In this document: piece after piece, positions 1 through 59,539 of the stretch | How positions within the stretch are numbered: the first letter of the stretch is position 1 | How the letters are laid out: each line of letters starts with the position of its first letter | Assembly: GCA_018902385.1 (NCBI GenBank) | Contig: JABSSW010000044.1 | Location: 353,487 to 417,486 of the forward strand | Source of the DNA: Physcia stellaris | Lineage: Eukaryota > Ascomycota > Lecanoromycetes > Caliciales > Physciaceae | Reading direction: 5' to 3' | Length of the DNA: 64,000 bases | Position numbers and translations under genes: made by a program | Notes under the pieces: generated by a model | Told to the model about the DNA's origin: nothing | Database searches by the model: none | What the model saw: only the letters and a program-made list of their open reading frames with translations

Positions 1-1
1 A

Positions 2-1210
2 AATGATAGCCTACACAATCTTTTGCCAGCAGTGCTTCGGCAGAAGTGCCAAACTCTGATTGAGGAGAGATTGATTGCCGCTGCAGACGCAGAAGAACTT
101 AAACGGGCCGAAGAGTCGTTCCAGACAACCCTGTCGTACAAAAAATTAGGCATGCTTGCTGCTATCAAGCGAATGACCTTATTAGCAAATTCTCGAAAAG
201 TGCAATGCCGCCCAGACCTAGATTTGCAGTCGGAATCAGGTTTGATACGTCGAACAGAGCGTTTCGGTGATCATGCCCTCGGAACAATCACGGGTCGATA
301 TCTCTTTGATAGACACGAAAGACAGGTCTTCATAGAATACCTGAGATATGATGTAGGCTGGAAAGGTCCTGTTACGGAAGAAATGATGGTACGCATAGAA
401 GCTATTGCCGAAATGCACAGCCAGGCAGACAAACCGACCGACATCCGATCGCTCAATTGCATTGGCTACTTTCATTCAGCCCCGGAGCGAGCTTTCTGCA
501 TCGTCTACGATTTTCCACTAGAGCCTGACTTGAAGGATGAGAAAACCCAAGTTTACAGCCTGAGTAAAGTGATTATGCTGAGCCAAAAATGGATTCAGAG
601 ACCTTTCCTAGAAGACCGATATAGACTCGCACAGACCTTGGCCATATCGCTCCTTGAGTTTCACACCGTTGACTGGCTCCATAAAAATCTCTCCGCCCAC
701 AACATCATTTTTTTCAACAATGAATCCAAGGTAGGCAAGAACAATCTCCAACGCATCCGGGAGCTGGAAGCGCCATTCATAATTGGCTTCAGTCGCAGTC
801 GACCTAATGAGCCGGCCGCATACACAAATGGACCAAGCATCTCAAGCGAAAGCCGTATTTACCAGCACCCGCAGTATGCAGAACGCAAACACAGTTACCG
901 CCCTGAATTCGACTACTACAGCCTTGGTCTTATTTTGCTTGAGATCGGGCTTTGGATGCCCCTGACCAGGATGATAGCAGATCAAAAAATTTCGTCATTA
1001 GAGCAGCAGAGGCTCTTGTTATTGCGCACTCGTGTTCCGCTTCTTGGCCATTATATGGGCAAAGACTATTTAGCGGCTGTCTCTGTTTGCCTCCAGACAT
1101 TTGGAGACTCGACCGACAACCAGGAGGATGGTCTTGTGGAACGGAGTGCGTCCAAGCGTCTCATGTTCAGTGACGAAGTCGTGGCAAGGTTGAGGAGACT
1201 ACGATCTTGA
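2..1210 (+). CDS. HeLo/prion-propagation-type pseudokinase, 5' partial
   Basis: The reading frame is open from the left edge and ends with TGA at 1208-1210. The first in-frame ATG lies well inside, so the start is missing: it is either upstream of the window or in an earlier exon, since TTTGCCAG at 22-29 could be an acceptor site. Numbering from base 23, residues ~85-330 resemble the kinase-like domain of fungal HeLo/HET-S-associated proteins. Seen: a beta3-like strand at ~101-110 without the usual Lys, a helical stretch with LLEFH and a catalytic loop reading HKN (220-222) instead of HRD. The DFG position reads GFS (255-257), followed by YQHPQY and YYSLGLILLEIG (~298-309) and a C-terminal MGKDYLAAVSVCL block. 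HRD and DFG aspartates are absent, so phosphotransfer is unlikely. In this family the domain usually sits behind an N-terminal HeLo membrane or cell-death domain, here off-window. A role in non-self recognition or regulated cell death is an inference from the family. It converges with the secreted-protein gene at 1459-1995. Confidence 0.8.
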   Translation, partial: NDSLHNLLPAVLRQKCQTLIEERLIAAADAEELKRAEESFQTTLSYKKLGMLAAIKRMTLLANSRKVQCRPDLDLQSESGLIRRTERFGDHALGTITGRYLFDRHERQVFIEYLRYDVGWKGPVTEEMMVRIEAIAEMHSQADKPTDIRSLNCIGYFHSAPERAFCIVYDFPLEPDLKDEKTQVYSLSKVIMLSQKWIQRPFLEDRYRLAQTLAISLLEFHTVDWLHKNLSAHNIIFFNNESKVGKNNLQRIRELEAPFIIGFSRSRPNEPAAYTNGPSISSESRIYQHPQYAERKHSYRPEFDYYSLGLILLEIGLWMPLTRMIADQKISSLEQQRLLLLRTRVPLLGHYMGKDYLAAVSVCLQTFGDSTDNQEDGLVERSASKRLMFSDEVVARLRRLRS

Positions 1211-1383
1211 GTGAACTAGAGAGTAGGGCTGCTGGCTAGGAAAATCTGTGTTCTTCGAGTCTTTTCGAGTGCGAGCTTGTTTAGTGCATGTGACTCAGGC
1301 CATTGTAGGACTAAGCTGATGCTGCTCAAGGGGTATCTCATATATTATTGCTATCAAACATTAGTAGCCGCAACGATCAACGT

Positions 1384-1443
1384 CGCTATGCCTCCCATCG
1401 CTATGCTTCCCAACGCTATGCTTCCCATCGCTATGCTCCACAA
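1384..1443. repeat. 15-bp minisatellite, 4 units
   Basis: Four consecutive 15-bp units (1384, 1399, 1414, 1429) follow CGCTATGCTTCCCAT with 0-4 changes. It lies in the 248-bp convergent intergenic stretch between the pseudokinase stop and the secreted-protein stop, so it probably falls in one or both 3' UTRs. A length multiple of three keeps frames open, which explains spurious small reading frames here. Confidence 0.9.
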
Positions 1444-1458
1444 ATCCGTCGTGTCCAC

Positions 1459-1995
1459 CTACGCGTGCACAATCGCCCCACCCTCCTGCATCACCGAGCC
1501 CGCCAAATACGCATCATTTTCCTGAAAGATCTTATCGAAATACGCCCCCGCTCCAATCTGATACACGCTCTTGGTCCCATCCTGCGCAATCTCACTGTTA
1601 TCACTGCTGAGATTCACAAACCCGCCATCATTCGTGTTCGGCTCCTCCACGATGCACGTGCTTATCACGGCTGATAGCGTAGTCGTGCATTCGTCGACCG
1701 TAGGCACTGGCATCTGGTCGGTGTGGTACACCATGGCGCGGCAACTCCCACTGTCGAGGGATGTCCAGCCGTTGACGGTCCACGCCTCGCCGGGTATCAT
1801 AGCGCAGAGCTGGGTTGCGGCGGCGGTGCAGTCCGAGGGGCTGGTTTGGGAGTAGGACCAGACCCAGTTCTCGGTGTTGGCGCAGGATTGAACGGGTTCG
1901 ACTTGGCGGCGGGACAGGGTGGGAAGGGCGTTGGTGACAATGGGGAGGAGAAGGTAGAGAGGGAGAATGGACAGATGGGGAGATTTAGTCAGCAT
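1459..1995 (-). CDS. small secreted cysteine-containing protein (178 aa)
   Basis: Stop codon is TAG at 1459-1461. I chose the ATG at 1993-1995 because it opens directly into a signal peptide: a hydrophobic core LSILPLYLLLPIV at residues ~8-20 and a likely cleavage near TNA (21-23). It is followed by an Arg-Arg pair (28-29) typical of Kex2 propeptide processing. The frame stays open upstream to 2115, but those 40 residues look like 5' UTR. The mature part has six Cys (SCA, DCT, LCA, SCR, ECT, TCI), which could form three disulfides, plus an aromatic motif NWVWSY. The C-terminal ~60 residues have no Cys and are Gly/Asp/Asn-rich. I do not recognise the family with certainty. Size, secretion, Cys content and position ~0.5 kb from an AT-rich block make it an effector-like candidate, but this is inference only. 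A TATA box lies 158 bp upstream. Confidence 0.75.
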   Translation of the reverse strand: MLTKSPHLSILPLYLLLPIVTNALPTLSRRQVEPVQSCANTENWVWSYSQTSPSDCTAAATQLCAMIPGEAWTVNGWTSLDSGSCRAMVYHTDQMPVPTVDECTTTLSAVISTCIVEEPNTNDGGFVNLSSDNSEIAQDGTKSVYQIGAGAYFDKIFQENDAYLAGSVMQEGGAIVHA

Positions 1996-2521
1996 CGAGG
2001 ATGGTGGTGATGGAGTGTGAGAGAGAGATAGGCAACTTATGATTATTTTGATTATAGATAGAGTAGCTGTCAAAGCATTATCATAGAGATAGAGATCAGG
2101 CAGTAATATACTCATGCAATGTTGATCTCAATGAGCAAGGGGGCACAGTCGTCTTTATAGTGAGACAGAGGATGAGGCGGTACAGCACAGTATACGATCA
2201 CGAGTTATTGAAGAATCATGGGACCAAGTCGACCCACTCGATCGCTGAGGATTTGCAGGAGGCATGTCCTGCGGCTCATTGGACGTCCGCAGGCTGATAC
2301 TGTCTGCCGTGTTTGACAGATGGTCCTTAACTTGGCCACCGGGACACCGCTCTTGTTGAAGGCAAGAGAACCACTGCAGCGTCGGTGGGATATCCTGCTG
2401 ACACATTGTAAGCCTCGGACGGGCGAACATCGCGTTCCCCACACTTGAAATGGGGTTTCAGCCAACCGGATAAGTTTTTCGTGACTTGTTCGACTAACTT
2501 TGCGCCTCAATCTCTTGACAA
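1996..2521. other. promoter region up to the AT-rich boundary, no further gene seen
   Basis: Normal base composition with CC, GG and CT present. Two overlapping minus-strand open frames (2155-2442 and 2205-2525) exist, but neither shows a signal peptide, a domain or a recognisable motif, and both overlap the promoter. I treat the stretch as regulatory or intergenic. It ends in a sharp composition change near 2520. Confidence 0.6.
2153..2159 (-). promoter_or_regulatory. TATA box of the secreted-protein gene
   Basis: TATAAAG reads on the minus strand 158 bp upstream of the chosen ATG at 1995. The spacing implies a 5' UTR of roughly 120-130 nt, which is normal for filamentous fungi. It supports the shorter start, because a start at 2115 would leave almost no leader. 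Confidence 0.5.
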
Positions 2522-2719
2522 TCAAAAATTGCGATTTTACATTATTAGTTTCGTTTTAAATTCAATATATTACATACATTATTGAACGTCATATTAAAAT
2601 AATAAAAATCAAAAAATGTTTTTTCGATGTTAATTCATTCGAAATTGAAATTTTGCGTTAATTCATGATACGTTTCAAATTTCGAATATTTTTGTCGTTT
2701 TTGTTTCGTTTTGTATTGA

Positions 2720-2965
2720 ATGATTCGAACACAAATACATTTATTAAATTTTTCATTCAAATTTGAAATGTTCGAAAATTTATTCAAACAAATTGAAAAA
2801 ATAAAAAATTATTTGTGAAATCAAATATATTGAATTTTGTTAACATGTACGATGATTGAATTTCAAACGTATTTAAAATTTGAATTTGAACGAAATTTTT
2901 TGCATAAATGTTCGATATGAAAATGAATTCATTGCGATTGTTTGTTTGAAAATATATTTTTTTTT
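2720..2965. repeat. dispersed repeat E, copy 1
   Basis: Aligns by eye with 4640-4845. Shared landmarks are TGTGAAATCAAATATAT, ACATGTACGATGATTGAAT and TTTGCATAAATG in the same order and nearly the same spacing. Differences are mostly G/A and C/T. The two copies lie ~1.9 kb apart in direct orientation, so they could be LTRs of a decayed element, but no clear TG...CA ends or target duplication were found. Confidence 0.6.
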
Positions 2966-4639
2966 TGTGTTTTTTACAAAAATATTCGAAATGATTTGAA
3001 ATTTTTTTGACGAATAATTGATTTGTGAAAATTACGATAATTCGTTCACAAAAATAATATCGTTTTTGATTAATTTAATTATCGAAAATTTTTTTAATAT
3101 TATTTTTTTTGTTATTGCGTTTTTAATTTTTTTTGTTTTCACGAATCGTTTTCGTGAAAAAATTTTGATTAAATTTTGTGCGTTGTTTTCGATTACGATC
3201 GTTTTAATGTCAATCTCATCAAAAATGACACGAAAAAATTAATAGCAATTGACACGATCGCGACGTTTTCATCGATTCATTTCGATAAAATTCGATATTT
3301 TTTTTTAATGTCAAAACAACATTCGTAATAATTATGATAATTTCAAATTCAATTGCAATCGAAAAATTTTTCACATTCGAAAAAATTGATTTTTCGAACG
3401 TTCGATAAATTTGTAAAAATCGTTTTTCAAAACATGTTTTTCGTATCAAACGATTTCTTGTTTTTCGAAACAACGAAATTTGAAAAATTTGATCATTTTT
3501 GATCATAACAATCGTCAATTGATTTTTTAATTTTTTGACGAAATCGAACGAAACAAAATTTGTTGCGAATTTACGATCGTTGAATTTTTTAGAAACATCA
3601 TTTGTAACGAAATGTTGATTTCGCTTTTCGTGATTGAGAAATTGTGAATGATAAAAAAATTCTTTTTGATTTTAAAAATTGATGAGTATTTGTTTTGAAT
3701 TCGCGATAAACGATAAATGCAAAATTCATCATTATCGACGTCACAATTTCAAACTTTTTAAAGTTTTTTCAATGTCGACAATGATTGTTTTTTTGACAAG
3801 CAATTCAATGTTATCGAGTTTAAATGTGATCGAACATTTCGTGACATGTTTTATTCGTCGTATTGAATGAACATCGAAACGATTTATTCATTGTTTGACG
3901 ATTTGTTCATCGATGAATAATGTTACGATCGAAATTTCTGATGACTCGTCGAGATCGCAATCGTTGTCGTCAATCACTGAAACGATATTTTTCAATTTTA
4001 TGATGTTTGTCATTTAGTCAATTGAAACGTTTTAATTCGAAATATGAAATACACAATCGACAATTGATTTTATAAAATTTCGTTTCATTTCGTTTTTGAA
4101 AATATATATATATATATTTAAAAATACAAATTTTTCATTCGAATTCAAAATATTGAATAATACATTTTTCGATATCGATAATGATTGTTTTTTTAACAAA
4201 CGATCGTTTTCGATTGTTAAACGATTTTGATTAAATTACGATTTTCAATTTCATTTTCAATAATGATTTGAATCAAACGTATCAATAAAACATTCGATAA
4301 ATATTTTGAATTGTAATTTACATCATATTGAAAAATAAAAATGATAAATAATTCAAACATTTTGTGCGAATTGACAATAACAATAATTTTTTTTTAATCG
4401 TATTGAAAACAAAACGATCAATGCATTTTAAATTTTTGTATTGTTGATATCAAATATTGTTAACACGTTCGAAATCATTCAAAAACGTTTTGAATTTTTC
4501 GACAATTTTCACGATAACGAATTCGCGTGAACATTCTGTGAATCGGAAATGATAAACGAGATAAACTTGTTAGAATCAGAAATTGAGAAAAGTTCGAAAG
4601 TGAATTTAGATATATATATATATTTGTAAAAATACAAAT
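2966..4639. other. AT-rich stretch between the copies of repeat E, no gene seen
   Basis: No recognisable domain on either strand. It contains a short extra piece of repeat E at ~4090-4170: an AT dinucleotide run followed by AAAATACAAATTTTTC, matching ~4612-4685. This could be the internal part of a degraded LTR element, but nothing coding can be supported. Confidence 0.5.
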
Positions 4640-4845
4640 TTTTCGCTCGAATTCAAGATATTGAATAGTACATTCAAATGAGTTGAGATGATAAGAAATT
4701 ATTCGTGAAATCAAATATATATCGTATTTTGTTGACATGTACGATGATTGAATTTCAAACGCATTTGAAATTTAAATTTGAATTAAATTTTTCGCATAAA
4801 TGACAAATGTGAAAATGATTTTTTTGCGATTGTTAATTGTTGAGC
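4640..4845. repeat. dispersed repeat E, copy 2
   Basis: Second copy of the repeat at 2720-2965. It retains more AG and CT steps than copy 1 (for example GTAC before ATTCAAATGAG), so it appears less mutated. The AT microsatellite at ~4611-4623 lies just before it. Confidence 0.6.
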
Positions 4846-4989
4846 GAAATTCAATGTCAGATTCAGTGAAACAAGCTAAAAAGTTTTTTGAAACAAAGAT
4901 GAAAAATATATCGATTGTACGTCGATTAACAAGTAATGAATTTGCGTCAAAAATTGAATCAGATTTTGTGCGCGTGTCGCTGATTCATT

Positions 4990-7470
4990 GAATGTGAAAT
5001 GATAAAGTTTGAGTCAAATCTGAATCAAAAATTGAGCGAAAGTCAATTATCAATCGATTTTGCATTAATTGTGAAATATTCGAATTTGATTTAATTTAAT
5101 TCAAATTCTGTGCACGTTTCACTGATTCATTGATTGTGAGATGATAAATTCTGAATCAAAATCTGAACAACTAATTCGTTGATTGTGAGATGACGAATTC
5201 CGAATCAGAATTTGAATCAAAAATTGAGCGAAAGTCAATGATTAGTCGATTGCTCATTAATTGTGAAATATTCGAATTTGATTTAATTTGATTCAGATTC
5301 TGTGCACGTGTCAATGATTCATTAATTTCATTGTGAGAAGATAAAAGCAAAACTTGCGAAATGAATCGTTTCGAAAATATAAAAATAAATTGAGATTCAG
5401 ATGTTTAAGACAGAAATCTGACAATGATTGTTTCGAGAAAATCATTGCGAATGTATATTCGAACAGCGATTAGCGATTAACGACGAAATATCAAGAAATG
5501 ATGAATTTTCGAAATTTTTCAGTTTATTGTAACAGATGTTCAAACGCGAAAAGTAAAAACATATTGAAAAACGCTCGAGCGAGATTTTTTCAAATTTTCG
5601 ACGTTCAAACACTTCGAAACAGTATATTTACGAATTATTTTCATAGATTCGACTTTTTGTAAGACTTGCTGAAGCAAAAATTTCTTGTTATGTATTTTGT
5701 CAATATCGATTAATTAGAAAATTTATAGATTGAAAACAATCAAAATCGAAAATGATAAAATTTGAATCAAAATTCGAACATAAGTCAATGAAAATTATAT
5801 TATTTATTGATTGTGAAAGAATTGAATTTGATTCAAAATTTGAATTAAATTTTGTGCACGTATTATTGATTCATTAATTGTAAAATATAAAATTTAAATC
5901 AAAATTTAAATCAAAAATTGAACATAAATCAATGATTAATCGATTGTTCATCAATTGCGAAATATTCGAATTTGATTTAATTTGATTCAAATTCTGTGCA
6001 CGTGTCAATGATTCATTAATTTTATTGTGAAAAAATAAAAACAAAATTTGCGAAATGAATCGTTTCGAAAATATAAAAATAAATTGAAATTCAAATGTTT
6101 AAAACAAAAATTTGACAATGATTGTTTCGAAAAAATTATTGCGAATATATATTCGGACAGCGACTAACGATTAACGACGAAATATCAAGAAATGATGAAT
6201 TTTCGAAATTTTTTCAATTTATTGTAACAGATGTTCAAACGCGAAAAATAAAAATATATTGAAAAACGTTCGAACGAAATTTTTTCAAATTTTCGACGTT
6301 CAAACATTTCGAAACAATATATTTACGAATTATTTTCATAAATTCGAATTTTTGTAAAATTTGTTGAAACAAAAAATTTTTGTTATGTATTTTGTCAATA
6401 TCGATTAATTAAAAAATTTACAAATTGAAAACAATCAAAATCGAAAATGATAAAATTTGAATCAAAATTCGAACATAAATCAATGAAAATTATATTATCT
6501 ATTGATTGTGAGAGAATTGAATTTGATTCAGAATTTGAGTCAAATTTTGTGCACGTCTCATTGATTCATTGATTGTGAAATATAGAATCTGAATCAGAAT
6601 TTGAATCAAAAATTGAACATAAATCAATGATTAGTCGATTGTTCATCAATTGCGAAATATTCGAATCTGATTTAATCTGATTCAAATTCTGTGCACGTGT
6701 CAATGATTCATTAATTTCATTATGAGAAAATAGAAGCAAAACTTGCGAAATGAATCGTTTCGAAAATATAAAGATAAATTGAAATTCAAATGTCTAAGAC
6801 AGAAATTTGACAATGATTGTCTCGAGAAAATCATTGCGAATGTATATTCGAACAGCGACTAACGACTAGCGACGAAATATCAAGAAATGATGAATTTTCG
6901 AAATTTTTTCAATTTATTGTAACAGATGTTCAAACGCGAAAAATAAAAGTATGTGAAGAAAAGTTCGAGTGAAAAAAAGAAAATTCAAGCGAAATTCTTT
7001 CAAATTTTTAACGTTCAAACATTTCGAAACAGTATATTGACGAAATACTTTAATAAATTCGATTTTTTGTAAAGATTGTTGAAACAAAGATTTCGTGTTA
7101 TGTATTTTGCTAATATCGATTCATTAAAGAATTCACAAATTGAAAACAATCAAAATCGAACATTGTAAATTCTGAATAGCATAAATCAATGAATTTATTG
7201 ATTGTGCGAAAATTGATTCTGAATCAGAATCTGAATCAAAATTTGTGCACGTATCACTGATTTTTGATTGAAATGAAAGAATTTGAATCGAAATCTGAAT
7301 CGAAATCTGAATCGAAATCTGAATCAAAATCTGAATCAGAATTCGAATCAAAAGATCGAGTACAAATCAACTGTTAATCGATTTTTAATTAATTGTGAGA
7401 CGATAAAATTCAATTCAAATTCTAAAGCAAAAACTCAACACAATGAAAAAAAACAATTAATTGCATGTTA
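4990..7470. repeat. ~694-bp tandem repeat, about 3.5 units
   Basis: The marker CGACGAAATA recurs at 5481, 6175 and 6870 (spacing 694 and 695). The marker TTATGTATTTTG recurs near 5687, 6383 and 7080. Units contain GTGCACGT, AATGATTCATTAATTT and GTAACAGATGTTCAAACGCG blocks. The last unit is incomplete and degenerates into a 12-bp minisatellite at 7283-7352. The middle unit is clearly more mutated than its neighbours. No coding potential is conserved among units. The array gives one of the best hand alignments for the mutation spectrum of this region. Confidence 0.9.
7283..7352. repeat. 12-bp minisatellite in the last 694-bp unit
   Basis: About six units following GAATCGAAATCT, with variants CAAAATCT and CAGAATTC. 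It arises by local expansion of the GAATCAAAATTTG-type words common in the 694-bp array. As a multiple of three it keeps a minus-strand frame open with a repeating Ile-Gln-Ile-Ser peptide, which I regard as spurious. Confidence 0.85.
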
Positions 7471-7559
7471 ATCATTAATTAACGCACAAAAATTGTCATG
7501 AATATCATGCAATAATGCAATTATGAATAAATAAGTGATTGATTAACTAGAAAAATGTG

Positions 7560-8400
7560 TGAGAAAGTATTTACATGTTCGCGTTTAACGAGAATCGAAA
7601 ACGTCTGAAAAAGAAAAATTGTTTTAATTTGAAAACAATTTCGTTATTATTGATTTTTCGACAAACATGATATAAAATTCGATAATAATAAAATATAATT
7701 TCGAAAATAAATTGCAAAAAATGTTGATTGCATAAATGCAAATTGTTGAAACGAAATTGACAATGTATTTTTTGAACGTTTTGATACGAAATTTGATGCA
7801 AAATTCGCGATAAATGAATTTTTGAATAAAATGATTTGTTTCGATGTAAAAAAAAATGAAAAAATGTTTTCGATTGCGATGTAAATTTCAAATTATTAAA
7901 TAAAAAAATTATCGATTGCGAAAATGTAATAAAAAAAATAAAATGATTCGAAACAACAAATTTCGATTTTTTCGCATGATAATCGCGAATATGTTCGTGT
8001 AATTCAATATTTCGTTGAATAATATTTGCATACAAAAATCGTCAATCGAATTTCTTTTTGTTTTTTTGCAATTCGAATTTTTTCGATTTTTTTGTCGATT
8101 TGTTATTGTTTTTTGAATATACGTGTTTGTTCGTCACGTTTTTATTGTTTTTGACGAATCAAACAAATTTTGTAAATTCGAATTTTTTCGATTTTTTGAC
8201 GTTTTTTGATTAAACGAATTTATTCGATTTGTTGTTGTTGTTTTGCGAAACGATTTTGTTTTATTTTTTGACGAACGTAAAAAATTTGTTGATCAAAAAT
8301 TTTGCGAATTTGTTAAATTTGCAAAATTCATCGACAATCAAAATTTCAATCTTGATAAATTTCGTAAAATCGTTGAAAAACAATAAAATTAAATACGTTA
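7560..8400 (-). pseudogene. decayed gag-like protein with C2H2 finger (retrotransposon relic)
   Basis: Read on the minus strand, ~8300-8040 gives a basic, Gln/Lys/Arg-rich segment with repeated KKRQKIEKIRI-like words. It is followed by a C2H2-like signature split between frames: FVCKYYSTKY, then LHEHIRDYHAKKSK. The second Cys position reads Tyr. A further ~130 residues run without stop to 7571. The same order (Gln-rich coil, then (F)(A/V)CKRC, then LH.H..(D/N).H) occurs in the LTR element at 21679-24415 and at 42900-43330, so this is another copy of that protein family. The frame is broken inside the finger. No flanking LTRs were found. The family resembles zinc-finger gag-like proteins repeated in Dothideomycete genomes, a judgement from memory only. 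Confidence 0.55.
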
Positions 8401-8529
8401 TCGAAAAAATGATTTAATAATAAAATTCAAAACGATAATGAAATCATGACGTACGAATAATAAAAATAATGCAAAAAAAAATTCGTAAACAAATAAATAA
8501 ATAAATGAATTTTGATTTAATAAATGTAA

Positions 8530-11500
8530 TTCAAATCGAATCAATTTGTTTCAAATTAATGATTGATAATATTTTTTTTGTTTAAATACGTCGTTTGTTT
8601 TTTTTGTTACAATTTCTCATATCGAAAAGTTGTGTAAAAAACGATTTTTTTTATGAAATATTTCGTGCGTGCGATAATTCAAAATTGTTATATAATTTTT
8701 CGACGTAAATTGAAAATAAAAAAAATTCAATTATCGTGAACGCGATCACGCGACGAAATAAATATGAATATTTATTCGAAATTTTATGTGCGTTTCATAT
8801 GTTCGAAATTTTTTTTTGATATTTTTGTTTTCGTCATTTTCAATATTGAAAACAATTATTGATTCAAATTTCGATCGATTAATTTTTAATTTTGTGAACA
8901 TTTTTTTTGTTTTTTATTATTTTTTTCATTTTCATTCAAATTGTTTGATTGTTTTTTCAACATTCGATTTATTAATTTATCTTTTTCAAACAATCATTTG
9001 TTTGTTATATCAAAATTTATTTGATTTTTTGTTAATTTACATTAAACACGACAATTCAACATTTTTTTTATTTTTTCAATTTGATTTTTTGTTGTTTTTC
9101 GTTTGATATTCGATTTTATTCGTTTGATTTTTGATTGTTTCAAATTCGAAACGATTTCGCGACATTTTTTCATTTCAACGTTTGACGAATCGCGTTCAAA
9201 ATTTAATCATGATTTATTAATCACAAAAAAATATCGATTATGTTACAAATTCATCGAAATCAAAAAATTGAATCAGAATTTACGTGAAAAACGTTTATTC
9301 GCGCGATCATGAAAAAACAATCGATATTTTGTTCACGATCGTTAACAATTTGATCATTAAATACGATTTAATATCATTTAATTATGCGCGTCACGAAATG
9401 ACATTCAAAAATATTTTAAAACAATATCGAAAATGAATGTATCAAAATGCGTTTTCGTTTGAATATGCAATTCAATTTTTCATCGCGAATCAATTCGACT
9501 GATTCGAATTTTTGAAATTAAACATTTTATTTTATCAAATCATTTTTGAATTGAATTCGAAAGCGATCAATGTTTTTTGCGTGTTTCATCATGATTTGAT
9601 TTCGTGATGTTGATTTTTAATAAATGTTTTTCATTTCGTTTTTTTTGATTGTCAATTCGTTTTTTTTTTTCGTCAATTCGTTTTTTTTTTTTTTGCTTTT
9701 TCGTTTGTGTTTTCACAAATCGTTTCGTTTTCGAGATTTTTTTGCTCAAACAACAATCGCGAATCAATTTTCAAACAAATTCGTTACACGAAAAAATGTG
9801 AACGATTTCGTTATTTATTGTCAATCGATGCGACAAATTGTTCAAATATTTAACGCAATCGTGAAAAGTTTGCAATTCGTGAATTTTTCGAATATGTTTG
9901 TTTTTAGCGCTGAATTATCTGTGAAACATTTGAAATATCATCAATTGTTTCGAATATTGAAAAATTCAAACATCATGTCGAACGAAAATCATCAAAATTT
10001 GATTTACGATTTGAATGACATTCGTAATATTAACATCACGAATGATGAATCGTTTCGTGCGACAATTGAAATTCGTGTGAACAATGAATTTTCAACGATG
10101 CAAATTCGAATCGTGAATAATAACGATTTCGATACGCATTTTTTCATCGATGAAAACAAAAAAATCGTTTAATGAATGCGCAAAAATTTCATTTGACGAA
10201 AATTTATTTCACGATATTTTTAAAGATTTTCAAACGAAAAAATTGATATCGCATGTCAAATTCAAAAACAACGTTGCAACAAACGATACGTATTTGCATT
10301 TTTTTCGAACATTATTTCAAATTTACGTCGTGACGTTGTTGAATTTCAAACAAATAAACGAATCAAATTAAATATTTTTTCGTCGTCAAATTCAAAAATC
10401 GTTTTACAATTTAACGTCACAACGTCAAATTCATTCACAAACAAATCGTTTAAAAAAAAACGAAAAATAATGCGCAATTTTTCACGTACATTTTAATGAA
10501 CGATTTTTTGATCAATTCAAACGTATCAAAACAATCGTTCGCGAAAATCGAAAAAAACGAAAAAAATGTTATTCAACATGCATTAATACATTATTTGCGA
10601 TAAACATTACAAAAATTGATCGAAATTTAACATTCAAATTTTTTTAAATTCGAAATTTATCGAACACGTGCACGACAACACATAATCAAAAATCAAACAA
10701 TTTTTGAAATTAAACACGAACGACAATAACAAAAACAAAATTTCAATTCATAATTTCAAAAAAAAATATTTTATTGACAATGAATTGCGATATATTATAT
10801 GTTTAAATGCAATCAAAATCAAAATGATCAAATGAAAAATTTAATTAAAAATGAATTCGAATTGAACAAAATATGCGATGTTCAAAAACAATGTTGAATA
10901 TCATCATTAACATTGTGAATTTCAAACGATTATAACGATCGCGATAACAATATTTCGATTTCAATAATTTCGAAAAAAACGAAAATCAAAAAAAAAATGA
11001 AAAATTTCATCGCAACATTTCAAACATTTTTTTTTGATGCGTTTGACAATGTCAAATGTTTAATTATCGATAATTTTTTTTACAAATATTCGTGTTAATC
11101 GAATAACGAATTTTATAATTGAAATTTTATCGATGAAATCACAATTTTTTTTGTTTTAAACAATTTTTTTGAACAATGAATTGAACACATTCGAAATTGA
11201 ATTGATTTCAAAATCATTAATATTCATATTTTCGTTTGTTATTCGTCGACGAATCAAAAAATTTTCGAACAAACAATGTCGTACGACAACGTCAAACATT
11301 TTGTTGAAATCAAAATCGACATTTCAAATTCGTTTTATAAATTGTCGTCGTTTCGATTTCGTTTGAATATTAATTTCGTTAAACAAATAAATTTGTTTGA
11401 TTCAAAATCGAACAATTTTTGAATCGTCGACACATAACAAATTCTCAAAAAACGAAATGCAATATTGATTTTAATTCACAATTACAAATTTCAAAAGCAT

Positions 11501-13560
11501 AAAAAAACAAAAAAACATATCGAAAAATTTTATTTGAATCATTACGATTTGATCATCGTGAATGAATGTTATTTTGTGAAAACGTTTCGCAAAAATTTTG
11601 AAAAAATTTCAAAAACAATTCGACATGCGATCGACGTTGCGATTTATGATGATAAAAATGTTTAAAACAATGATCGATCGCAATGTCGTCGTCGATTTGA
11701 ACGAAACGATTTTTTTATGAAATCACGAAATTTGAAAAATTCAAAATCATCGATTTCATCAATTGCATTCGACGACGTTGATCAAAACAATCAAAAAAAT
11801 AAAAACGATCAAAATGAAAATGCGTTTGAAACGACACGAAAAAACGATAACAACAATTCGAAAACTGTTTAATGTTTTTTCGCATGTTGCAATAATTCGT
11901 GACGATATTACGCGATAAAAAAACGATAAATTATTATTTCTTTTTGAATTCGTTGTTATGTGAATTCAATTAAATTTTCTCGATACATATTTCGTTGTTT
12001 TTCAAAATATAATAAAATCAAAAAAAAAATTAAAATGTTGATTCAATTGCAAACAACGTAAAAACAAAATTGTAAACGAAATACGCAATACGAAATCGTC
12101 AATTCGAATCGTTTTAAAAAATTTGATTTTAAACATTTATTGAATAAAATTCGTTTTGTGTAAATGATAACGAATTTGTCAATAATAATTACATTGATTA
12201 TCAATGTCGATTAAAAATAAATTAACGCGAAAATAAAAAAAAATTTTATATTAACGATTGATAAATCATTAATTCGTAAAAACGTATTCGATCAAATGTA
12301 TCGACAAATTGTCGTTTTTTGTTTCAAATTTAATGTTTTGAAAAATATATTAACGCACAAACATTCGAAAACGCATGCGTTAATTATGTCGCAATTTTCG
12401 AAAATTTGTTTGATAATTTTTGAAATAAATTCGTTTTCGAACAAATCGACATACATTTATTATTTTTTTTTAAATTTTTTTTAACGTATATTATTTTTTG
12501 TGTCGCATGTGATATTGATTGCGATTTGTTATTCAATATATACGAAAAAATTTCGCGTTCAAAAATCGATTGTTTTACATGTTTTTCGATTTCGAAAAAA
12601 GACGAAATTCAATTCGTCGCGTTTTTCAAAAAAATATCGATGAAAATAATAAATCAATCGAAAAATATTAATCGAATATTTTGATAAACATCACAAACAA
12701 AATAAAAACGTTATTGAATTTCACAAAAACAATTGTGATAATTTTAATGAAATTCGTGTACAATTCGCAATTAATTGTTCAGATATTCAAACGAATACAT
12801 CGTCAAAAACAAAATTTTTCGATGTATTTTTACGATTTTCACGAGCAAATTTGAATCGAAAATTTAATGAACAAAGCACGTTTGTTCACAGAAATTTTGA
12901 CGAAAAAATTTTCGAAAATGCAAAAACATCGCGAACGTTTTCATGAAACTATGATGACATAAATATGATAATCGAAACTTGACAATTTTCAATATAACAA
13001 AATGAGCAATTAGTTGAGAAATAATTTAACAATTCAATAACAATTCATAATGATTGTTTTTGTATCAAGACAGTTCACACGCGCAAACATCGAAATTTCA
13101 AAATTTCGAACGATTTTTATTTTTAGCACAAATTAAATTAGACTTTTTCACTGTTAGTCATCGTTGCAACGAGCGTTGTTGTTTTTCAACAACATCGAAT
13201 TACACGATCGAAACAGAAAAAACGAACAAATTCAAAAACAACAACGTATTTGAACGACGATTTTAAAAAAAAAAACGACGTCAATAACACACACGTATGC
13301 GATCATGATCAATGAAATGAAAATCAAATATTTACAACAAAAGAAAAAGAAAAACGAAACGCACGTTCAAAGAGAAAAATCAAAATGTGAAAAAATTAAA
13401 AAAATGAAAACATTGTACACGTCGTGAAAAATCAAGTTCACAAACGTCGCACAGTATCACGCAACGATCATTGAAATTACGATTTCAAAATGAATAATGT
13501 CATGTTGAATAATTGCAACATGATCGTTGAAAAAAGTTGAAAATTTGTTCATTTTTACGA
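8530..13560 (+). mobile_element. repeat family A, left copy (~5 kb, decayed)
   Basis: Nearly colinear with the reverse complement of 33020-38060. The sum of matching coordinates stays at ~46,580 along the whole length (for example 9103/37476, 11169/35416, 12296/34280), so there are almost no net indels. Conserved open stretches include 9103-9312, 9624-10172, 11169-11366 and 12296-12484; each has a counterpart in the other copy that differs by few residues. Part of it (about 9640-10440) also recurs at 24935-25720. Its protein class is not recognised: no reverse transcriptase, integrase, DDE or helicase motif could be read. Ends are placed where similarity stops and are uncertain by ~20-40 bp. 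No LTRs, terminal inverted repeats or target duplications were found. Orientation is arbitrary, following the open frames. Confidence 0.75.
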
Positions 13561-16500
13561 ACACATTCGACTCGAATACGCATCGATCGTAATTTTTCGT
13601 TCACATGAACATTTATGATAACACGAAGCGATTCATCATTCATGATATTAATATTGAAAAAGTCATTTCATTTTCGTCGTATATCAATTCATGAAAATCG
13701 TTCGAAATTTTGTTCGATTTTTTCAATCATCGAATCAATTTAATATAAATTAAATGTTTCAAAGATATTTTCGTTCGAAAAACAAACACATTGAATGAAT
13801 CAACAAAATGAAATTTTTCACGTTTTTCGCAAACACATCGATCGCTCGAAAATGATATCGATTTTGATAAAACACGAATTGTGTGAAATCGATTTTTCAT
13901 TCGTTCACAATCATGTTTATAGCGTCAATGCAAAATTTATTTTGAATTTTTCATTGAACGTTTTTGCAAATGTTGTATCAATAAATTTCAAGAATCACGT
14001 AATTTTCTCGATGATGAAATGATCGATGAAAATGTGTAAAAAGTTATCAAAATAACGAAAACATCGTCGTCATCGAATTGAGTCGTCGTTTGAAAGCGAG
14101 AAAAGAAAATAAAATTATCAAAAAAATTTTCAATTTTTTCAAATCATGCAATTTCAAAATTGTCATATATTTTTTTTATATCACGATCAAGAATCATGTT
14201 TTTTTTGTTTGACGTTCAATTCGTTTATAAAATTTCGTCTAGCAATTCATTCAAGTTGAAAAAAAGTTCGAAAAAACAAATTCAAAATTTCATTGAGTGA
14301 AAAATTCAAAAAAATTTCTGCTCATAATTTGAACGCAATTTAGATGTTTATCGAATGCAAATGAAATTTTAATTCAAAACGATTTCAATTTTCGTCAAAT
14401 ACAAACTGAAAAAAACATCGAAATTTGATGAATTCAGCAAATTATCAAATTTGATATCGACGACGAGCTTGTCATTTGTGCGAAGACTTTTGAAAAAATT
14501 TGATTAAAATTTGAAATAAATTTCAAACAATGCATCGAAAATTCGAATTTGTTTGACAACATGCGCGATGATTTAACGCATTCATTATTCTTTGATAATT
14601 AAACATTTTGATATGAACGTGAATCAAAATGACGCTAAAATGTGTAACAAAACATCACAATTTTAGCGTTTGACTTTTGATGTTGAAATCGTACATGTTT
14701 TGACTTTAACGTTGTAATTTATTCGTAAAATACAATCGCAAAGTCGCGCAAAATTTCAATATTCAAATTTTTCGCACACGCAATGAGAATTTATAATCAT
14801 TATTGAAATCATTTTCGCTAACAAAACTTCGTAAAAAGCGAATGTGAAATGAATAAAATTGTAATGCTTGAAATTCTATTTACAAATTTGTTAAAAAATT
14901 TATAAACACGTTTTGTTTGATGCAACGTACACATAAATTATTGCACATGCGCGATTCTCAATGCGATAGTCGTGAATGTGATGATTTTATCAATGTGACG
15001 AAATTGCTTGTTTCATGATACAATCGATTTGATGTTTCGTCTGATAAATAGAATTTTACTCGTTGTTTCGAGCACGAATACTGTACTTGATTTAAAATTT
15101 TCGATTCGACGAAAAAGATGTTTCATTGATTTTGACGTCGAAAATCGATTTCGAGTCGATTAGTCACATAATCAAAAACATTGTTTTTGTTTATTATTGT
15201 TTTTCGAATCGACGATTATTTTTGATTATCATTGTTAAACAATTGAATTAATGCAACGATCAATTTTATCGATGAACAGAATTTGTTCGTTGCATTATTG
15301 TTTTGTAAATTTAAATTAATTAATGATGATTCGACTAGAACAACATCAAAAATTCATCGATTTATCGATCATCGTTTTTATTTGTTCGCTTTCATGTTGT
15401 TTTCAACAAGATACGTTCAATCTAGTTGATGTCGATGATTAATTCTAATTTCGATCGTAATAAAAAAAATGAAGAAAAAAGAAATTTAATGTTTGATCAT
15501 GCAAGCAAACTTTTGAATGCTAAATAATTCATGTTAAATGAGTGACGTCATTGATGAAAATGATTCAACAATGTGCAAAGAAAAATCGAGAAACAGCAAC
15601 AAGTTTTCATTTTTTCGTTCATTGTAAAATATTGCTCGTCATTTTTTTGTTCAATCTGTATTCAGAAATTTCTTCAAATTTTTCATATCAATATTCGTTA
15701 TTGTGAAAGAAATCGAAGTGATTTTCGACGTAATCGAAGAATTGATATTAAATTTGAATCAATACGATTTTTTTTTGAACATTTTCATTTCGACGATTTT
15801 GATATCAATATAACAATTTTTCATTCGAGTCAGAATTAAAAATTTTCAAATTTGAATATAGTTCTCGAAAACGAATCGATTTTTATTGAACAATTTTCGT
15901 AATTCAAACATCGTTTTCGCATTGTTTCAATTCATGCGTTCGAACAAAATTTGTTCAATGACGATGTCATCGTTCAACGACATTGCAACAAAAAAGTTTT
16001 CGTTGATTGATGAATACATTTTGCGCATATTTGCAAAAAAATTGATTGATTTTTTTAACGACATGTGACAATCAGCGATTTTTGTGACATTGTCACAATT
16101 CGAAATTTTCAATTCGTTTTTGTCGTTTACGATCATCAACATAAAATACACTGTTATCAATTTTGTGTTCGTTGAATTTTTTGATTCATATGAAATTTGA
16201 AAAAAAAAAAATCGAATGAATTCAATTTTTGTAAAGCAATTATTTCACGTTGTTTCGAAATTTTTCATATTTTCGTCAATGAAACTGTTGCGATTATAAA
16301 AATTGATACGATTTTTTTAGCAATTTTCGATTTTTCAATCGATCGCATCATTTTTCAAAATTATTTTGAATTTCTGTCAACAAAAAAGAATTATTATTCT
16401 CGTTTTTCTCAGTGAATGTTATTGATGTCGAATAACAATGCAAAATTTTTGCATCGAATAACAGTTGCGCATTTCGATTTAAATTTCGAAATTCAATTTC

Positions 16501-17061
16501 ATTATTGAGCAACGCGAAGCGCATATTCATTGAATACGACATTAAACGATGATTATAATTCAATCGTAAACATATCATTGTTTTGTACAGCAAAGAATTC
16601 GTGCGCACAATTTGTTGTAATGTCGAGTGTATACAATTTTCAAGTCATTCGCGTTCGAATTCAATTTTGATGATAAACATATGATATCGATACATTTTTA
16701 ACTCATTTACGAACATGTTTCAAATGTCGAAAATGTTCAGAAGTCAACTGTATGCGTTATTTATGTTCACAAAATCATTTCTTTTCATGTTTTTTATTCA
16801 ATTCGATTTCGCGTACATTTTAGTAATCTCGTAATTTACATTAAATTTCATTGAAGTCATGACTGAAAGTCTGAAATATGACGACGAGTTCGTAATTGAA
16901 CTTTGCGACTTTACAGTCGATTTGAACGATGTGAAAAAATTTGATGATTGATTTGATTTTTTTTTGTTGATTTTGTCGAATTTGTGTGACGATTTATACG
17001 TGAAATCTCGTTGTGATTTTTTAAATTTCGATTGAAATTTTTTCATCGACGTTCATTGCAT
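13561..17061. other. AT-rich stretch, no gene seen
   Basis: No homology to the other repeats in the window was noticed, apart from the hairpin at 14632-14669. Several 60-90-residue open frames (for example 13795-14022 and 15573-15839) have Phe/Asn/Ile/Lys-rich composition without motifs. Around 14640-15300 more CT and AG steps survive than elsewhere, suggesting a less mutated segment, possibly lower-copy DNA. Confidence 0.5.
14632..14669. repeat. inverted repeat (13-bp stem, 11-nt loop)
   Basis: ACGCTAAAATGTG at 14632-14644 pairs with CACAATTTTAGCGT at 14656-14669, with one extra A as a bulge. The left-arm word GACGCTAAAATGT also occurs at ~24480 without the right arm. This could be a transposon terminus or chance; no function is assigned. 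Confidence 0.6.
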
Positions 17062-17277
17062 TTTTCGAAATCGCGAAAACACTAAAAGTCGCGAAAAACA
17101 CAAAGACACGAAAATTCGAAAAAATCACAAAAACACGAAATTTCGCGAAAAACACGAAGACATGAAAAGTCGTGAAAAACACGAAGACACGAAAAGTCGT
17201 TGAGAGCACGAAAACACGAAAAATCGTGAAAAACACGAAAACACGAAAAATCGTGAAAAACACGAAAACTGAAAAAG
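17062..17277. repeat. 27-bp minisatellite, about 7-8 units
   Basis: Markers CGTGAAAAACACGAA and variants recur exactly every 27 bp at 17171, 17198, 17225 and 17252, with more degenerate units to the left. Unit differences are mainly AAGAC versus AAAAC and AAGTC versus AAATC, again G/A after A. Because 27 is a multiple of three, all frames stay open and yield repetitive peptides; these are not genes. Confidence 0.9.
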
Positions 17278-19358
17278 ATGAAAATTGTGAAAAACGAACA
17301 GATGTTCAAATTGTTTGTTTTTCGATTGATGAAATCGAAATGTTAAAGAAAACGTCGAAAAATGAAATTTGTGAACGAGAAAATGTTGAATTTGTCGATT
17401 CGTTGACGAATCGTCATCCAATGTACGATGATTGATTCGAAACGTTTGATGAAACGTAAAAATTTTTCGAAATAACGTGAAATGTATTGAGCAATGTTTT
17501 CGCACGATTTGTAATGAAAAAATCGTTAAATTTATATTTTAATTCGCGATTTGTTCGTATCAAATTCAATCGTGACAAGAAATTCGTCGTAAAAAATGTT
17601 GCATGATCGTATTTTTCATTTAAGATTTGCTGTAAATTTGCGATTGAAACATTTGAATTTTTTCGTTTTTTTGAATTTTCAAAAACATTCACTCGATTCA
17701 TCACGACATTTTTCATCATTGAACGTATTCGATCGACATTCGAATATTTTTTGACGAAATTGTTAAAAACGTTCAAAATTTTGCAATTGCGTGCGAATGC
17801 ATCATTTGTTTCACGATGTCAAAATTTCAAATTTGTTTCAATTTCTGTTTTGCTCGAAATTTTCGCTTTTTTTCAAAACGATATTTATTGATTTTTTTTC
17901 GCATGTTTGTTCAGCGATCGTTTTGCAATTCGATTCGATTCATTGACAATTTTTTCATCAATTGATAAAAGTCGATCATAAATCGCTTTATTTCATGACA
18001 CATAGTCATCACAAAATTTCGCACATTTCGTATCAAATTTTCAGCATATATTTCGCGTGCTCTGTGCGTCAAAAAATATTTCAACTCGTCGATATAATTG
18101 AAAACATTAAATTGAATCATCAAGCGTTGATTCGTTCATTTCAAAAAAATATTGATACGACGTTCGATTGTCATTACGAATGCTGATTTTACGAATGTTT
18201 TTACGAATGTCATTGTTGATTTGAAACTCGTTAATGAAACATGAACAAATCAAAATTCTGTAAATTTACGCAATTTATGAGAGTTGAACTTTGAAATATC
18301 AAATGAAAATCAAAGTTTTTTGCAAGTCTGAGCGATTTTTGAAAATTAATTCAAACAAAATTCAAAGATTGATTTGTGAAATATGATATCAAGTGAATCA
18401 AAATTTTGCAAAATTGAACGATTTCTGAGAATTAATCGATAAGATATCAAATGAGATGAAAATTGTATTCACAATTCAAAAAATCAGACTCGAAAAAACG
18501 AAACAAACATTGAAATCATTGAAAAGAAATGAATCTGCATGTCGATTATTAATTTAAATCAAGTGAATCTTCACGATCAATGTTTTTCATTTTCTGACAC
18601 GCAATTGTTAATGTTTATTGCTTTCATTTCATTTGATACTTTACACACATTTTATTGAAAAAAATGTCTGTCTTGATTTTAAGCAAAAACAGATTTTCAA
18701 AAACTACGAACTGAAATATTTCATTTTGTTTTCAAACAATTCAGTTCAAATGCAGATTTTTTTGTAAAGTACACATTTATTTGTTGAATTTTGATCGTAT
18801 TTTGAAAAATTCAGTCGACGTAATGATATTTTCAGATTATGACGATTTTTAAAATCGAGTTTGTGTATCAACGCGATATTTTTTTTTGCAATAAAATTTT
18901 TTTAATTGATGTGTATTACGAAGCAGATTTTTATTATTTTTTTTTAACGTTTCAGACGTGACGAAATCATTGCGCAAAATTCATAATTTCAATTAAAATG
19001 CAACTTTTTTTTTCGTGATTCGAACGATAACATCGATATCGTTTGTAAATTTCGACAGATTTTTTTTTTTGCGTAACGAGACGATGTTATCACTATTTAT
19101 TTGCGACATTTCGACAAAGTGATTGTATTGAACGATCAAGATTCGCGATATTTATTCGTCGATCGTTGAATAAAACGATTGAATTGAACGATCAAAATCA
19201 TCAATATTTATTCTGAATTTGACTCGATATGAATAAAAACATATTTTTTGAAAGTTTTCGCGAGTTCGCGATATTTTTCTTCGTCGCATTGTTTTTTGTT
19301 TTTTATTCATTTCGTCAATCGTTTTCATAATGTGATAGATGTTGTTTTTGATTGTTTT
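17278..19358. other. AT-rich stretch, no gene seen
   Basis: No recognisable coding or RNA feature. The part at ~18200-18800 retains noticeably more AG and CT steps (for example TCTGAGCG and GATTTCTGAG) than its surroundings, so it may be younger or less exposed to the mutational process. Open frames at 17414-17776 (-) and 17125-17505 (-) are motif-free or overlap the minisatellite. Confidence 0.5.
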
Positions 19359-19561
19359 CATTCATTTGTTGTATCGTTTCATTTTATTTCCGAACATCGA
19401 CATCGACGACTAAAATCATTTTTTTTGTTTCGTATTCATTCATCAACCGATTTTTTAACGCGAAAGACGTCGTCTTTCAAAAATTTCATTCACTTGTTGC
19501 ATCGTTTCATTTCATTTTCAAAAAACAACATTGACGACAATAATTATTTTTTTCGCTTTCG
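19359..19561. repeat. local duplication, ~75-bp units 128 bp apart
   Basis: CATTCATTTGTTGTATCG at 19359 and CATTCACTTGTTGCATCG at 19487 begin two similar ~75-bp stretches that both continue through TTTCATTT and GACGAC. Differences include CT/TT and CA/TA. The duplication lies inside an open frame (19248-19739) that has no recognisable domain. Confidence 0.6.
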
Positions 19562-19790
19562 ATCAACAATGATTTTCAAAATCGAATATTCAACAATAAA
19601 TGTACACATCAATGAAAGCGCGAGTCTCGAACATTTTCACGCACGCGAATCATTTTACACTTTTCATAATTTTTTGTTTTCGAATGTTTGTTTATTTTCG
19701 CGCAATTCAAATCGACAAAATAACAGAAAATTTGATTAAGCTTTGTGTTGTTCGATTCGACTCGAAAAACGCGCGCGAAAAAAAAAATTT

Positions 19791-20090
19791 CAACATCAAA
19801 ATTTAAATTTCTTCATGATTCAAACGTTTTGACTTTTTATTGATCAAAACAATTTTTGCATCAGCGTTTATTTGATGCAAAAATTTTTTATTGATGAAAC
19901 AATCGCGATTCTTGACACAATTCGAATTTTGAATGAAATTTCAATTTTTGTGTTGATCTTTTTCAACATCAAAATTTAATTTTTAATTTTTTATTGATCA
20001 AACAGTTTCTGCATCAGCGTTTATTTGATGCAGAAATTTTTCATTGATGAAATAATCGCGATTCTTGACACAATTCGAATTTCTGATGAA
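19791..20090. repeat. tandem duplication carrying a conserved hairpin
   Basis: Unit 1 starts at 19791 and unit 2 at 19967, both with AACATCAAAATTTAA. Inner landmarks are 153 bp apart because of an internal length difference. Each unit has a perfect 11-bp stem with the same 9-nt loop GCGTTTATT: 19853-19863 with 19873-19883, and 20006-20016 with 20026-20036. The stems differ at two paired positions (TTG/CAA versus CTG/CAG). Shared flanks continue with TTGATGAAA and AATCGCGATTCTTGACAC. Confidence 0.85.
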
Positions 20091-21673
20091 AAAAACAACA
20101 TTGTTTGCGAATTCACATGTTGTTAAAAAAGAACTTGCAACGCGACAACTTCGAAAACGACAAGATGATGTTTTTTTAAAACGAAAAACAAGTTCGCAAA
20201 CGTTTCGTAATCGATTGAAATTGTAAAAAAATGAAAAATTCGAAGAAAAGAAAAGAAACGAGAAAATTTTTGACAACAATAGATTGATTATCGAGACTGT
20301 TGATCACGACGAATAATTGACGTTTGAAATTTGACAATGACGACACAAATTTGTTCGCGACGACGACAACAAACTTGTTGTTTTGCGAAAACGTCTATAA
20401 CGCGTGATGAAAGTTTGAAACATGAAAAATTGTTACGCATTGAATGACAGCGAAATCGATTGAAAAAATCATTACAAACAAATGTAAAATTTGAAATAAA
20501 AAAAACGAAACGATTTGTTTATTAATCAAATTAATGCGAAATTTAATTTTATCAATAACGTTATCAACATTCGAATTATTAATCTTGATCAATGCGCAAA
20601 AAAAATATTTTAAAATAACGTTAATCGTTCAAACGTTCAAACACGTTATTTAAAAAATGACAACAATCATTTGAATTGTCGAAATTTATCGCGTTGCACG
20701 ATTCGACGAACTTTTCTTTTTCGCAATCGAAATTTTTTCAAAATCGTTTCACGATGATTCGTCGTCGTTTTTTTCGTCATCGTCAATATCAAATTTTCAT
20801 TTGCAAAATCTGATTGCTCGTCGTTTCTGTCTCGTACAAAGCAATAAAAGTCGTGATCGATTCATTTGTAATTATCACACGAATCATCGAAATGACTCGA
20901 GAAATGTTTGCATTTTTCAAAAATTTTTTGTCACGACGTTGTTTCAAAATTCGACATTGAATACAAACGATTGTTCGCGAAAACGCGACATTGAGCGATT
21001 TTTCGCGAAATTGAATCAGAATCGCGTCGAGATACGATGATCAATGAAATGCAATTTTCTCGACGATAATCGTAAATGAACGTTGTTGACGAAAAATGCG
21101 AATTCTTGATTGCGAACATTGAAACGATCGTTCGCGAATGCATAAAATTGACAAACTTGTTGTAAAAACAGAATTTGATGTAAAAATCAATTTACATTAA
21201 TAAAATTTCATACAAAGAGTGAAAGATTGTTCAATCAATACGTACTGCAAATACAGACGTGATTCACGAGAAAAAAAGAAAAAATTAATACATACGAAAC
21301 AGATTTCTTTTATGTGCGATCAAATTCATCTCGACACGATTTTGAGATTATTTACACAAAATCGATTCATTCGTTCATTCAATTAATTATTCGTTCTCAT
21401 TTTTTTTTTCGTTTCGTTGTTATCATTTTTTGTTATCAACATTTCAATTTAGTTTCGATAAACGTTCATTTTATTTCTCGATTGTTTGCGCAATCGCGTA
21501 ACAGTCGCGATGAAATGTCTGTTGATTATTTAATGTTAATGATACAATGACAAACGGCGAAATCGTCACGAACAAATCAATTTGTGTACAAGAAAAATCT
21601 GCTTTCGATTTTTTCGATTATTAGAAATGAAAATAATCAAATTTTCATTTAGTTTCGATACAATGAATCAAGC
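20091..21673. other. AT-rich stretch before the LTR element, no gene seen
   Basis: Open frames at 19998-20279 (-), 20801-21040 (+) and 21314-21550 (+) show no domain. No similarity to other repeats in the window was noticed. It ends at the 5-bp target duplication of the LTR element. Confidence 0.45.
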
Positions 21674-21678
21674 GTATT
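21674..21678 (+). repeat. target-site duplication, left (GTATT)
   Basis: GTATT immediately precedes the left LTR; GTATC immediately follows the right LTR at 24416-24420. Five bp is the usual duplication length for LTR-element integration. The single T/C difference is explained by a CpT to TpT change, because the next base in the left copy is T. Confidence 0.75.
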
Positions 21679-54880: not shown

Positions 54881-54881
54881 T

Positions 54882-59525: not shown

Positions 59526-59539
59526 ACACGAAATCAAAA

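What the first reader, a model, noticed from the sequence alone, without database searches (positions are those of the whole stretch)
5391..6879. Repeat-associated mutation targets CpT (ApG), not CpA, and spares CpG
Three units of the 694-bp array align without gaps over 100 bp (5391-5490, 6085-6184, 6780-6879). I count 15 variable sites, all transitions: 12 are CpT/TpT or ApG/ApA, 2 are CpA/TpG and 1 is GpG. About six CpG sites in the same stretch are identical in all units. Classical RIP in Neurospora prefers CpA, and methyl-cytosine deamination would hit CpG. Neither fits. This suggests a repeat-directed C-to-T process with an unusual CpT (and CpC) preference.
Basis: partly seen in the sequence, partly recalled or inferred. 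Interest (0 to 1): 0.9.

Follow-up and report, generated by a model that had tools for sequence, protein, structure and literature searches.

The report
Repeat mutation of cytosines before pyrimidines
A lichen-forming fungus appears to destroy its mobile DNA by turning C into T almost only where the next letter is C or T, the opposite of the rule known from Neurospora, so the usual software indices miss it.

Summary
The window is the end of a contig of the lichen fungus Physcia stellaris. In its AT-rich 61.5 kb, C/(C+T) is .002 before C and .056 before T, but .559 before A and .458 before G. Sampled GC-rich DNA lacks this bias. Comparing mutated transposon copies with unmutated or less mutated relatives, C became T at CpC 2169/2400, CpT 1536/2370, CpA 107/2541 and CpG 68/2379 sites. 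In the LINE family, CpA+CpG changes equal those between two unmutated copies (26/766 each). Paired LTRs of single elements differ in the same contexts, and DNA transposons carry the same TGA-rich stops, so the mutations arise in genomic DNA. Simulated CpC+CpT conversion of the genome's GC-rich DNA closely reproduces the block. This is a RIP-like process with inverted context, CpC>CpT>>CpA, CpG. Neurospora and Trichoderma rank CpC last (PMC5496416). CpT-led RIP has been reported before; CpC-led, CpA-sparing RIP I did not see reported. The enzyme is unidentified: the genome has a DIM-2-like and two RID-like genes. Some similar copies escaped mutation.

The parts
1..2475 (.). Gene-like GC-rich flank (ORFs 23-1210 + and 1459-2115 -), unaffected; internal control
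   Evidence: GC .505 for 1-2450, C/(C+T) before A/C/G/T .627/.443/.437/.528; sharp change at about 2476-2551
2500..64000 (.). AT-rich block that has lost C before pyrimidines on both strands
   Evidence: GC .263; O/E CpC .01, CpT .22, CpA 1.35, CpG 3.19; 10 CC and 7 GG on the + strand
4931..7480 (+). Tandem array with a period of about 694 bp, with a related copy on contig C68 (87% over 1223 bp)
   Evidence: ends approximate
5391..5490 (+).
6085..6184 (+).
6780..6879 (+).

Best explanation
A RIP-like genome defence of Physcia stellaris mutates transposon copies in genomic DNA, on both strands. It turns C into T where the next base is a pyrimidine (CpC faster than CpT) and leaves CpA and CpG at or near background. 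SHOWN: the context; no strong effect of the base before the C or of the second base after it; both strands; action after insertion; in one element set in GC-rich DNA, confinement to the element with a taper at its end; LTR and LINE retrotransposons hit, and DNA transposons with the same stop pattern; sparing of GC-rich DNA. INFERRED: that repeat homology is the trigger, that it happens around meiosis as in Neurospora, and that a C5-cytosine methyltransferase of the RID/DIM-2 kind with altered specificity for the 3' base does it. My guess at the enzyme: the divergent second RID-like gene on contig C6 about 45%, the ordinary RID on C5 about 25%, DIM-2 on C3 about 25%.
For: Block composition. In-silico CpC+CpT conversion of 160 kb of GC-rich DNA gives GC .26 and CpG O/E 3.19, as observed. 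Polarised comparisons: pooled. Unmutated-pair controls are flat: LINE C12 to C5 CpA 13/378, CpC 24/413, CpG 13/388, CpT 19/387; Copia trio CpA 6/178, CpC 5/98, CpG 7/140, CpT 3/168. LTR pairs: 8 of 10 found, 179 differences, 5 transversions, 159 of 174 C/T differences before a pyrimidine. Stops TGA/TAA/TAG: RVT_1 250/33/3, RVT_2 401/101/3, DDE_1 44/3/0, DDE_3 47/6/2. Element edge. Three C5-MTase genes.
Against: Copies with high identity are unmutated: LINE C12 and C5 (95% over 3 kb, 37 transversions apart, so not brand new) and Copia C8/C42/C7; Neurospora-like RIP should have hit them. TAA makes up a fifth of RVT_2 stops, more than Trp codons alone predict. The flank of L056 is of mixed composition, so that edge is not clean. 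The Copia element L053 is depleted of GpG mainly on one strand, unexplained. No methylation, cross or expression data; the enzyme is a guess.
Confidence: 0.78

Rival explanations
1. Slow decay: DIM-2-type methylation of CpT and CpC in heterochromatin followed by deamination of 5-methylcytosine during vegetative growth, with no homology-directed mutator.
For: Neurospora DIM-2 methylates with a CpT preference (review PMC13297926, passages); Dim2 promotes mitotic C-to-T in Zymoseptoria tritici, there at CpA (PMC8016269, abstract and passages). A DIM-2-like gene is present. Graded copies and unmutated similar copies fit a slow process.
Against: L053 to L054 has 490 C>T and 1 transversion in 3.4 kb, which argues for fast mutation. 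One mutated element in GC-rich DNA ends at its own boundary.
Confidence: 0.17
2. Canonical CpA-directed RIP, or CpG methylation decay, seen through a biased sample.
Against: CpA 107/2541 and CpG 68/2379 against CpC 2169/2400; CpA O/E 1.35 and CpG O/E 3.19 in the block; TpA/ApT .39.
Confidence: 0.01
3. Editing of retroelement cDNA by an APOBEC-like deaminase before insertion.
For: L053 has lost GpG mainly on the coding strand.
Against: LTR pairs of single elements, identical at insertion, differ in the same contexts; DNA transposons are hit; both strands are mutated. The mutated C is the 5' one of CpC (Trp TGG read as TGA), whereas APOBEC3G prefers the 3' one (recalled).
Confidence: 0.02
4. UV-type dipyrimidine damage, or a basecalling or assembly artefact.
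For: The published assembly used Nanopore reads (PMC7513301, passages).
Against: TpC, a UV target (recalled), is not depleted (O/E 1.43). The loss is on both strands, graded between copies, and stands beside unmutated copies in the same assembly; about 30-fold Illumina coverage is also reported (PMC7513301).
Confidence: 0.02

Closest known systems
RIP of Neurospora crassa (RID, DIM-2)
   Same: C:G-to-T:A transitions on both strands of transposon copies; RID-like and DIM-2-like genes present
   Different: Neurospora ranks CpA>CpT>CpG>CpC (PMC5496416, passage); here CpC>CpT>>CpA, CpG. Some high-identity copies are unmutated
RIP with a CpT share in other ascomycetes (Magnaporthe, Botrytis, Sclerotinia, Anisogramma)
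   Same: CpT is a main mutated context
   Different: There CpA goes along with CpT and CpC is not listed (PMC4352252, passages and one section; PMC10998396, passages). PMC7882544 says in one passage that CpT to TpT was the dominant form in alignments of RIP-capable fungi, so CpT by itself is not new; CpC first with CpA at background is what differs
CpG-directed repeat mutation (Microbotryum, in part Tuber)
   Same: Context other than CpA
   Different: CpG is spared here (68/2379; PMC4352252, passages)
RIP in other lichen fungi (Cladonia rangiformis, Endocarpon pusillum)
   Same: GC-poor transposon DNA (Cladonia); RID and DIM-2 reported (Cladonia)
   Different: Cladonia mutated DNA peaks near 16% GC, below the 26% that CpC+CpT conversion gives here; Endocarpon repeats have TpA/ApT 1.47, the CpA sign, against .39 here (PMC12542154 and PMC3897900, passages)

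Membership tests
RIP (repeat-induced point mutation) | C:G-to-T:A transitions on both strands | tested here: met
   L053 to L054 490 of 505 differences; LINE C12 to C2 705 of 740
RIP (repeat-induced point mutation) | Confined to repeated DNA | tested here: inconclusive
   GC-rich samples unaffected and one clean element edge, but one edge is mixed (L056) and mutated single-copy DNA was not sought
RIP (repeat-induced point mutation) | Long, similar duplicates are efficiently mutated | tested here: not met
   LINE C12/C5 (95%, 3 kb) and Copia C8/C42/C7 are unmutated, while many other copies are mutated; so I call it RIP-like
RIP (repeat-induced point mutation) | CpA preference of the classical type | tested here: not met
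   CpA 107/2541 against CpC 2169/2400
RIP (repeat-induced point mutation) | Genome holds RID (and DIM-2) genes | tested here: met
   Three PF00145 genes: one DIM-2-like, two RID-like; activity not tested
RIP (repeat-induced point mutation) | Happens in the premeiotic sexual phase and depends on RID | not testable with these tools
   Needs crosses and gene removals
APOBEC-like editing of retroelement cDNA | Mutations laid down before insertion, so that LTR pairs agree | tested here: not met
   8 LTR pairs differ at 179 sites, 159 of 174 C/T differences before a pyrimidine

The most novel reading that the evidence does not exclude
A divergent RID-family paralogue (the contig C6 gene, whose clade includes Heterodermia) has evolved recognition of a pyrimidine 3' of the target C and runs a second kind of RIP with a fully inverted context, invisible to RIP indices built on CpA.
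Probability: 0.35. Interest if true: 0.92.

Novelty: new variant of a known kind. Interest (0 to 1): 0.82.

Why it matters
A 2025 survey of 1,239 fungal genomes concluded that RIP-like defences share a CpA preference (PMC12543289, one section and passages). This genome looks like a clear exception. The standard indices score the block as unmutated (TpA/ApT .39, substrate index 1.50, composite -1.11), so systems of this kind may be overlooked elsewhere. What sets the sequence context of RIP is open; purified RID shows no detectable activity in vitro (review PMC13297926, passages). A natural inversion of context with three candidate enzymes in one genome makes that question testable by gene transfer into Neurospora.

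Tried and rejected
Rejected: CpA RIP, CpG decay, UV-type damage, cDNA editing, artefact (see rivals). The 77-bp array at the contig end was tested by lag comparison and is too saturated to decide: variable CpT 9, CpA 12, CpG 4; conserved CpT 3, CpA 142, CpG 76. Papers PMC3688495 and PMC3990668 were irrelevant; PMC11969663 held none of six context terms. Whether relatives with the C6-type gene share the context could not be tested: only their proteins were reachable. No structure was predicted. In their listings and in the passages I opened from 15 papers I saw no CpC-led or CpA-sparing RIP; most listed papers were not opened, and subscription papers such as Clutterbuck's 2011 survey (recalled) were not readable. 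Rows dropped: of 20 RVT_2 stretches, L040 and L052 were in no polarised comparison; of 10 LTR pairs, C9 and C11 gave no left LTR at the guessed place; L064 and L065 were fetched and not used; sites whose next base also differs were left out.

Full report
WHAT THE WINDOW IS. The window is G000:C44:353487-417486, the end of a 417,486-bp contig in a 43.97-Mb genome of 147 contigs. A methyltransferase on contig C5 matches a Physcia stellaris protein at 99% over 95% of the query, and that record's contig is 1,184,035 bp long, exactly the length of G000:C5. So this is P. stellaris, a lichen-forming ascomycete of the Caliciales, grown from ascospores and sequenced with Nanopore and Illumina reads (PMC7513301, passages; it reports 46.57 Mb in 184 scaffolds, so the copy held here is smaller; the phrase repeat-induced does not occur in it). 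The first 2.4 kb are gene-like (GC .505); the rest is AT-rich (GC .263).

THE OBSERVATION. The bias continues along the array and against its copy on contig C68, though longer alignments also contain transversions (26 of 136 differences in the best one).

THE WHOLE BLOCK. C/(C+T) before A, C, G, T is .559.002.458.056 in 61.5 kb. In 117 kb of GC-rich 1-kb windows it is .616.469.456.514, and in 43 kb of windows at GC .42-.48 it is .580.413.395.473; one further AT-rich 10 kb on the same contig gives .547.003.471.074 (17 stretches sampled, 16 GC-rich and 1 AT-rich). The base before the C and the second base after it matter little. Converting CpC and CpT in silico in 160 kb of GC-rich DNA gives GC .26, CpC .01, CpG 3.19, CpA 1.42, ApG .16, GpC .90; the block has .263.01, 3.19, 1.35.22, 1.06. 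The two efficiencies were set near the observed losses, so GC and CpC partly follow from that choice; the CpG excess and normal CpA were not fitted. Simulated CpA-only, CpT-only and all-context conversion do not fit.

POLARISED COMPARISONS. Mutated copies were compared with unmutated or less mutated relatives chosen by GC content; order CpC, CpT, CpA, CpG. Copia RT stretches of about 700 bp: L037 to four copies 197/206, 241/313, 21/376, 5/318; L033 to two 164/172, 124/152, 12/184, 16/195; L038 to three 9/9, 101/120, 16/268, 2/222; L046 to two 12/12, 76/108, 9/186, 10/152. An unmutated Copia trio shows no bias: 5/98, 3/168, 6/178, 7/140. Longer Copia pieces: L053 to L054 245/260, 238/391, 6/506, 1/366 (505 differences, 490 C>T, 14 T>C, 1 transversion); L055 to L056 466/496, 349/447, 31/526, 29/462 (961 differences, 875 C>T, 38 T>C, 48 transversions). 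LINE: C12 to C2 382/413, 295/387, 17/378, 9/388; to C34 380/412, 278/381, 24/378, 10/388; to C51 360/410, 198/383, 16/376, 10/387; to the partly mutated C95 336/409, 178/381, 13/377, 9/388. Control C12 to the unmutated C5: 24/413, 19/387, 13/378, 13/388. CpA plus CpG is 26/766 both in C2 and in the control. CpC goes 1.8 to 3.2 times faster than CpT by -ln(1-p). Pooled over these six comparisons, four of which share one reference: 2169/2400, 1536/2370, 107/2541, 68/2379.

GENOMIC, NOT cDNA. Two LTRs of one element are identical at insertion (established knowledge). Ten pairs were tried and 8 found: 179 differences, 5 transversions; of 174 C/T differences 76 lie before T, 52 before C, 31 before a C/T-variable site, 12 before A, 2 before G and 1 before an A/T-variable site. 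Stops in transposon matches (TGA/TAA/TAG): RVT_1 250/33/3 in 150 matches, with 150 of 527 candidates scored; RVT_2 401/101/3 in 137; DNA transposons DDE_1 44/3/0 in 10 and DDE_3 47/6/2 in 23 (counted by hand). GpG-to-GpA in Trp codons predicts TGA, and CAA and CAG are spared; the RVT_2 share of TAA (20%) is more than that predicts. In 16 stop-bearing RVT_2 stretches one conserved Trp column is TGA in all 16, and 58 of 71 TGA lie in columns where an intact copy has Trp (counted by hand).

EDGES. L054 sits beside GC-rich DNA: normal composition resumes at the element's end, with a taper over its last 150 bp. L056 is less clean, its flank being of mixed composition.

AGAINST STRICT RIP. LINE C12 and C5 are 95% alike over 3 kb, 37 transversions apart and unmutated; so is the Copia trio C8/C42/C7. 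The process may be inefficient, these copies may be sheltered, or it may have stopped. Repeat homology as the trigger is inferred.

ENZYMES. PF00145 gives four matches in three genes. C3 is DIM-2-like: 1118 aa, PF00145 and PF25423, a BAH match below the cut-off, best PDB match 9bap, named DNA (cytosine-5-)-methyltransferase. C5 is RID-like, in a clade with Usnea, Alectoria and Lasallia. C6 is a shorter RID-like gene; 29 of its 120 listed relatives (131 hits) reach 60% identity. It falls in a separate clade (100/99, 14 of 47 rows) that includes Heterodermia, which also has a C5-type gene (the tree warns of long branches elsewhere). C6 keeps PPCQ and, after two likely introns, QIGNAVPP (splice sites and motif meaning are my reading). 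Which enzyme acts is unknown.

LITERATURE. Neurospora CpA>CpT>CpG>CpC; Trichoderma reesei CpA~CpG, then CpT, then CpC (PMC5496416, passage). CpT with CpA in Magnaporthe, Botrytis and Sclerotinia, with a RID motif proposed as cause (PMC4352252, passages and one section); CpA and CpT in Anisogramma (PMC10998396, passages); dominance of CpT reported in one passage for RIP-capable fungi (PMC7882544); some CpT in Stagonospora rDNA and repeats (PMC2621366, passages). The kingdom-wide survey concludes for shared CpA preference (PMC12543289, one section and passages). So CpT alone is not new; CpC first, with CpA and CpG at background, is what I did not find.

Noticed in passing
L057 and L053 (G000:C20:567802-573053): A Copia element with identical 155-bp LTRs whose inner part is depleted of GpG mainly on the coding strand (CpC .45 on +.18 on -; asymmetry .56 against at most .25 in 32 control windows), while its LTRs still hold GG. 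Unexplained: a one-strand event, edge sparing, or transposition from a mutated template.
   Followed up: partly
L058 (G000:C12:59300-62300) and L079 (G000:C5:1165511-1168509): Two LINE copies, 95% alike over 3 kb, that escaped the mutation.
   Followed up: partly
L034, L035, L036 (G000:C8, C42, C7): Copia RT copies with long open frames and 91-99% identity, unmutated.
   Followed up: partly
window 59700-63830: Tandem array with a period of about 77 bp at the very end of the contig; perhaps centromeric or subtelomeric.
   Followed up: partly
window 9624-10172 and 24926-25444: Two similar open frames inside the AT-rich block, probably pieces of one decayed transposon family.
   Followed up: no
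L013 (G000:C6, about 790900-792600): A second, divergent RID-like methyltransferase gene with its own well-supported clade.
   Followed up: partly
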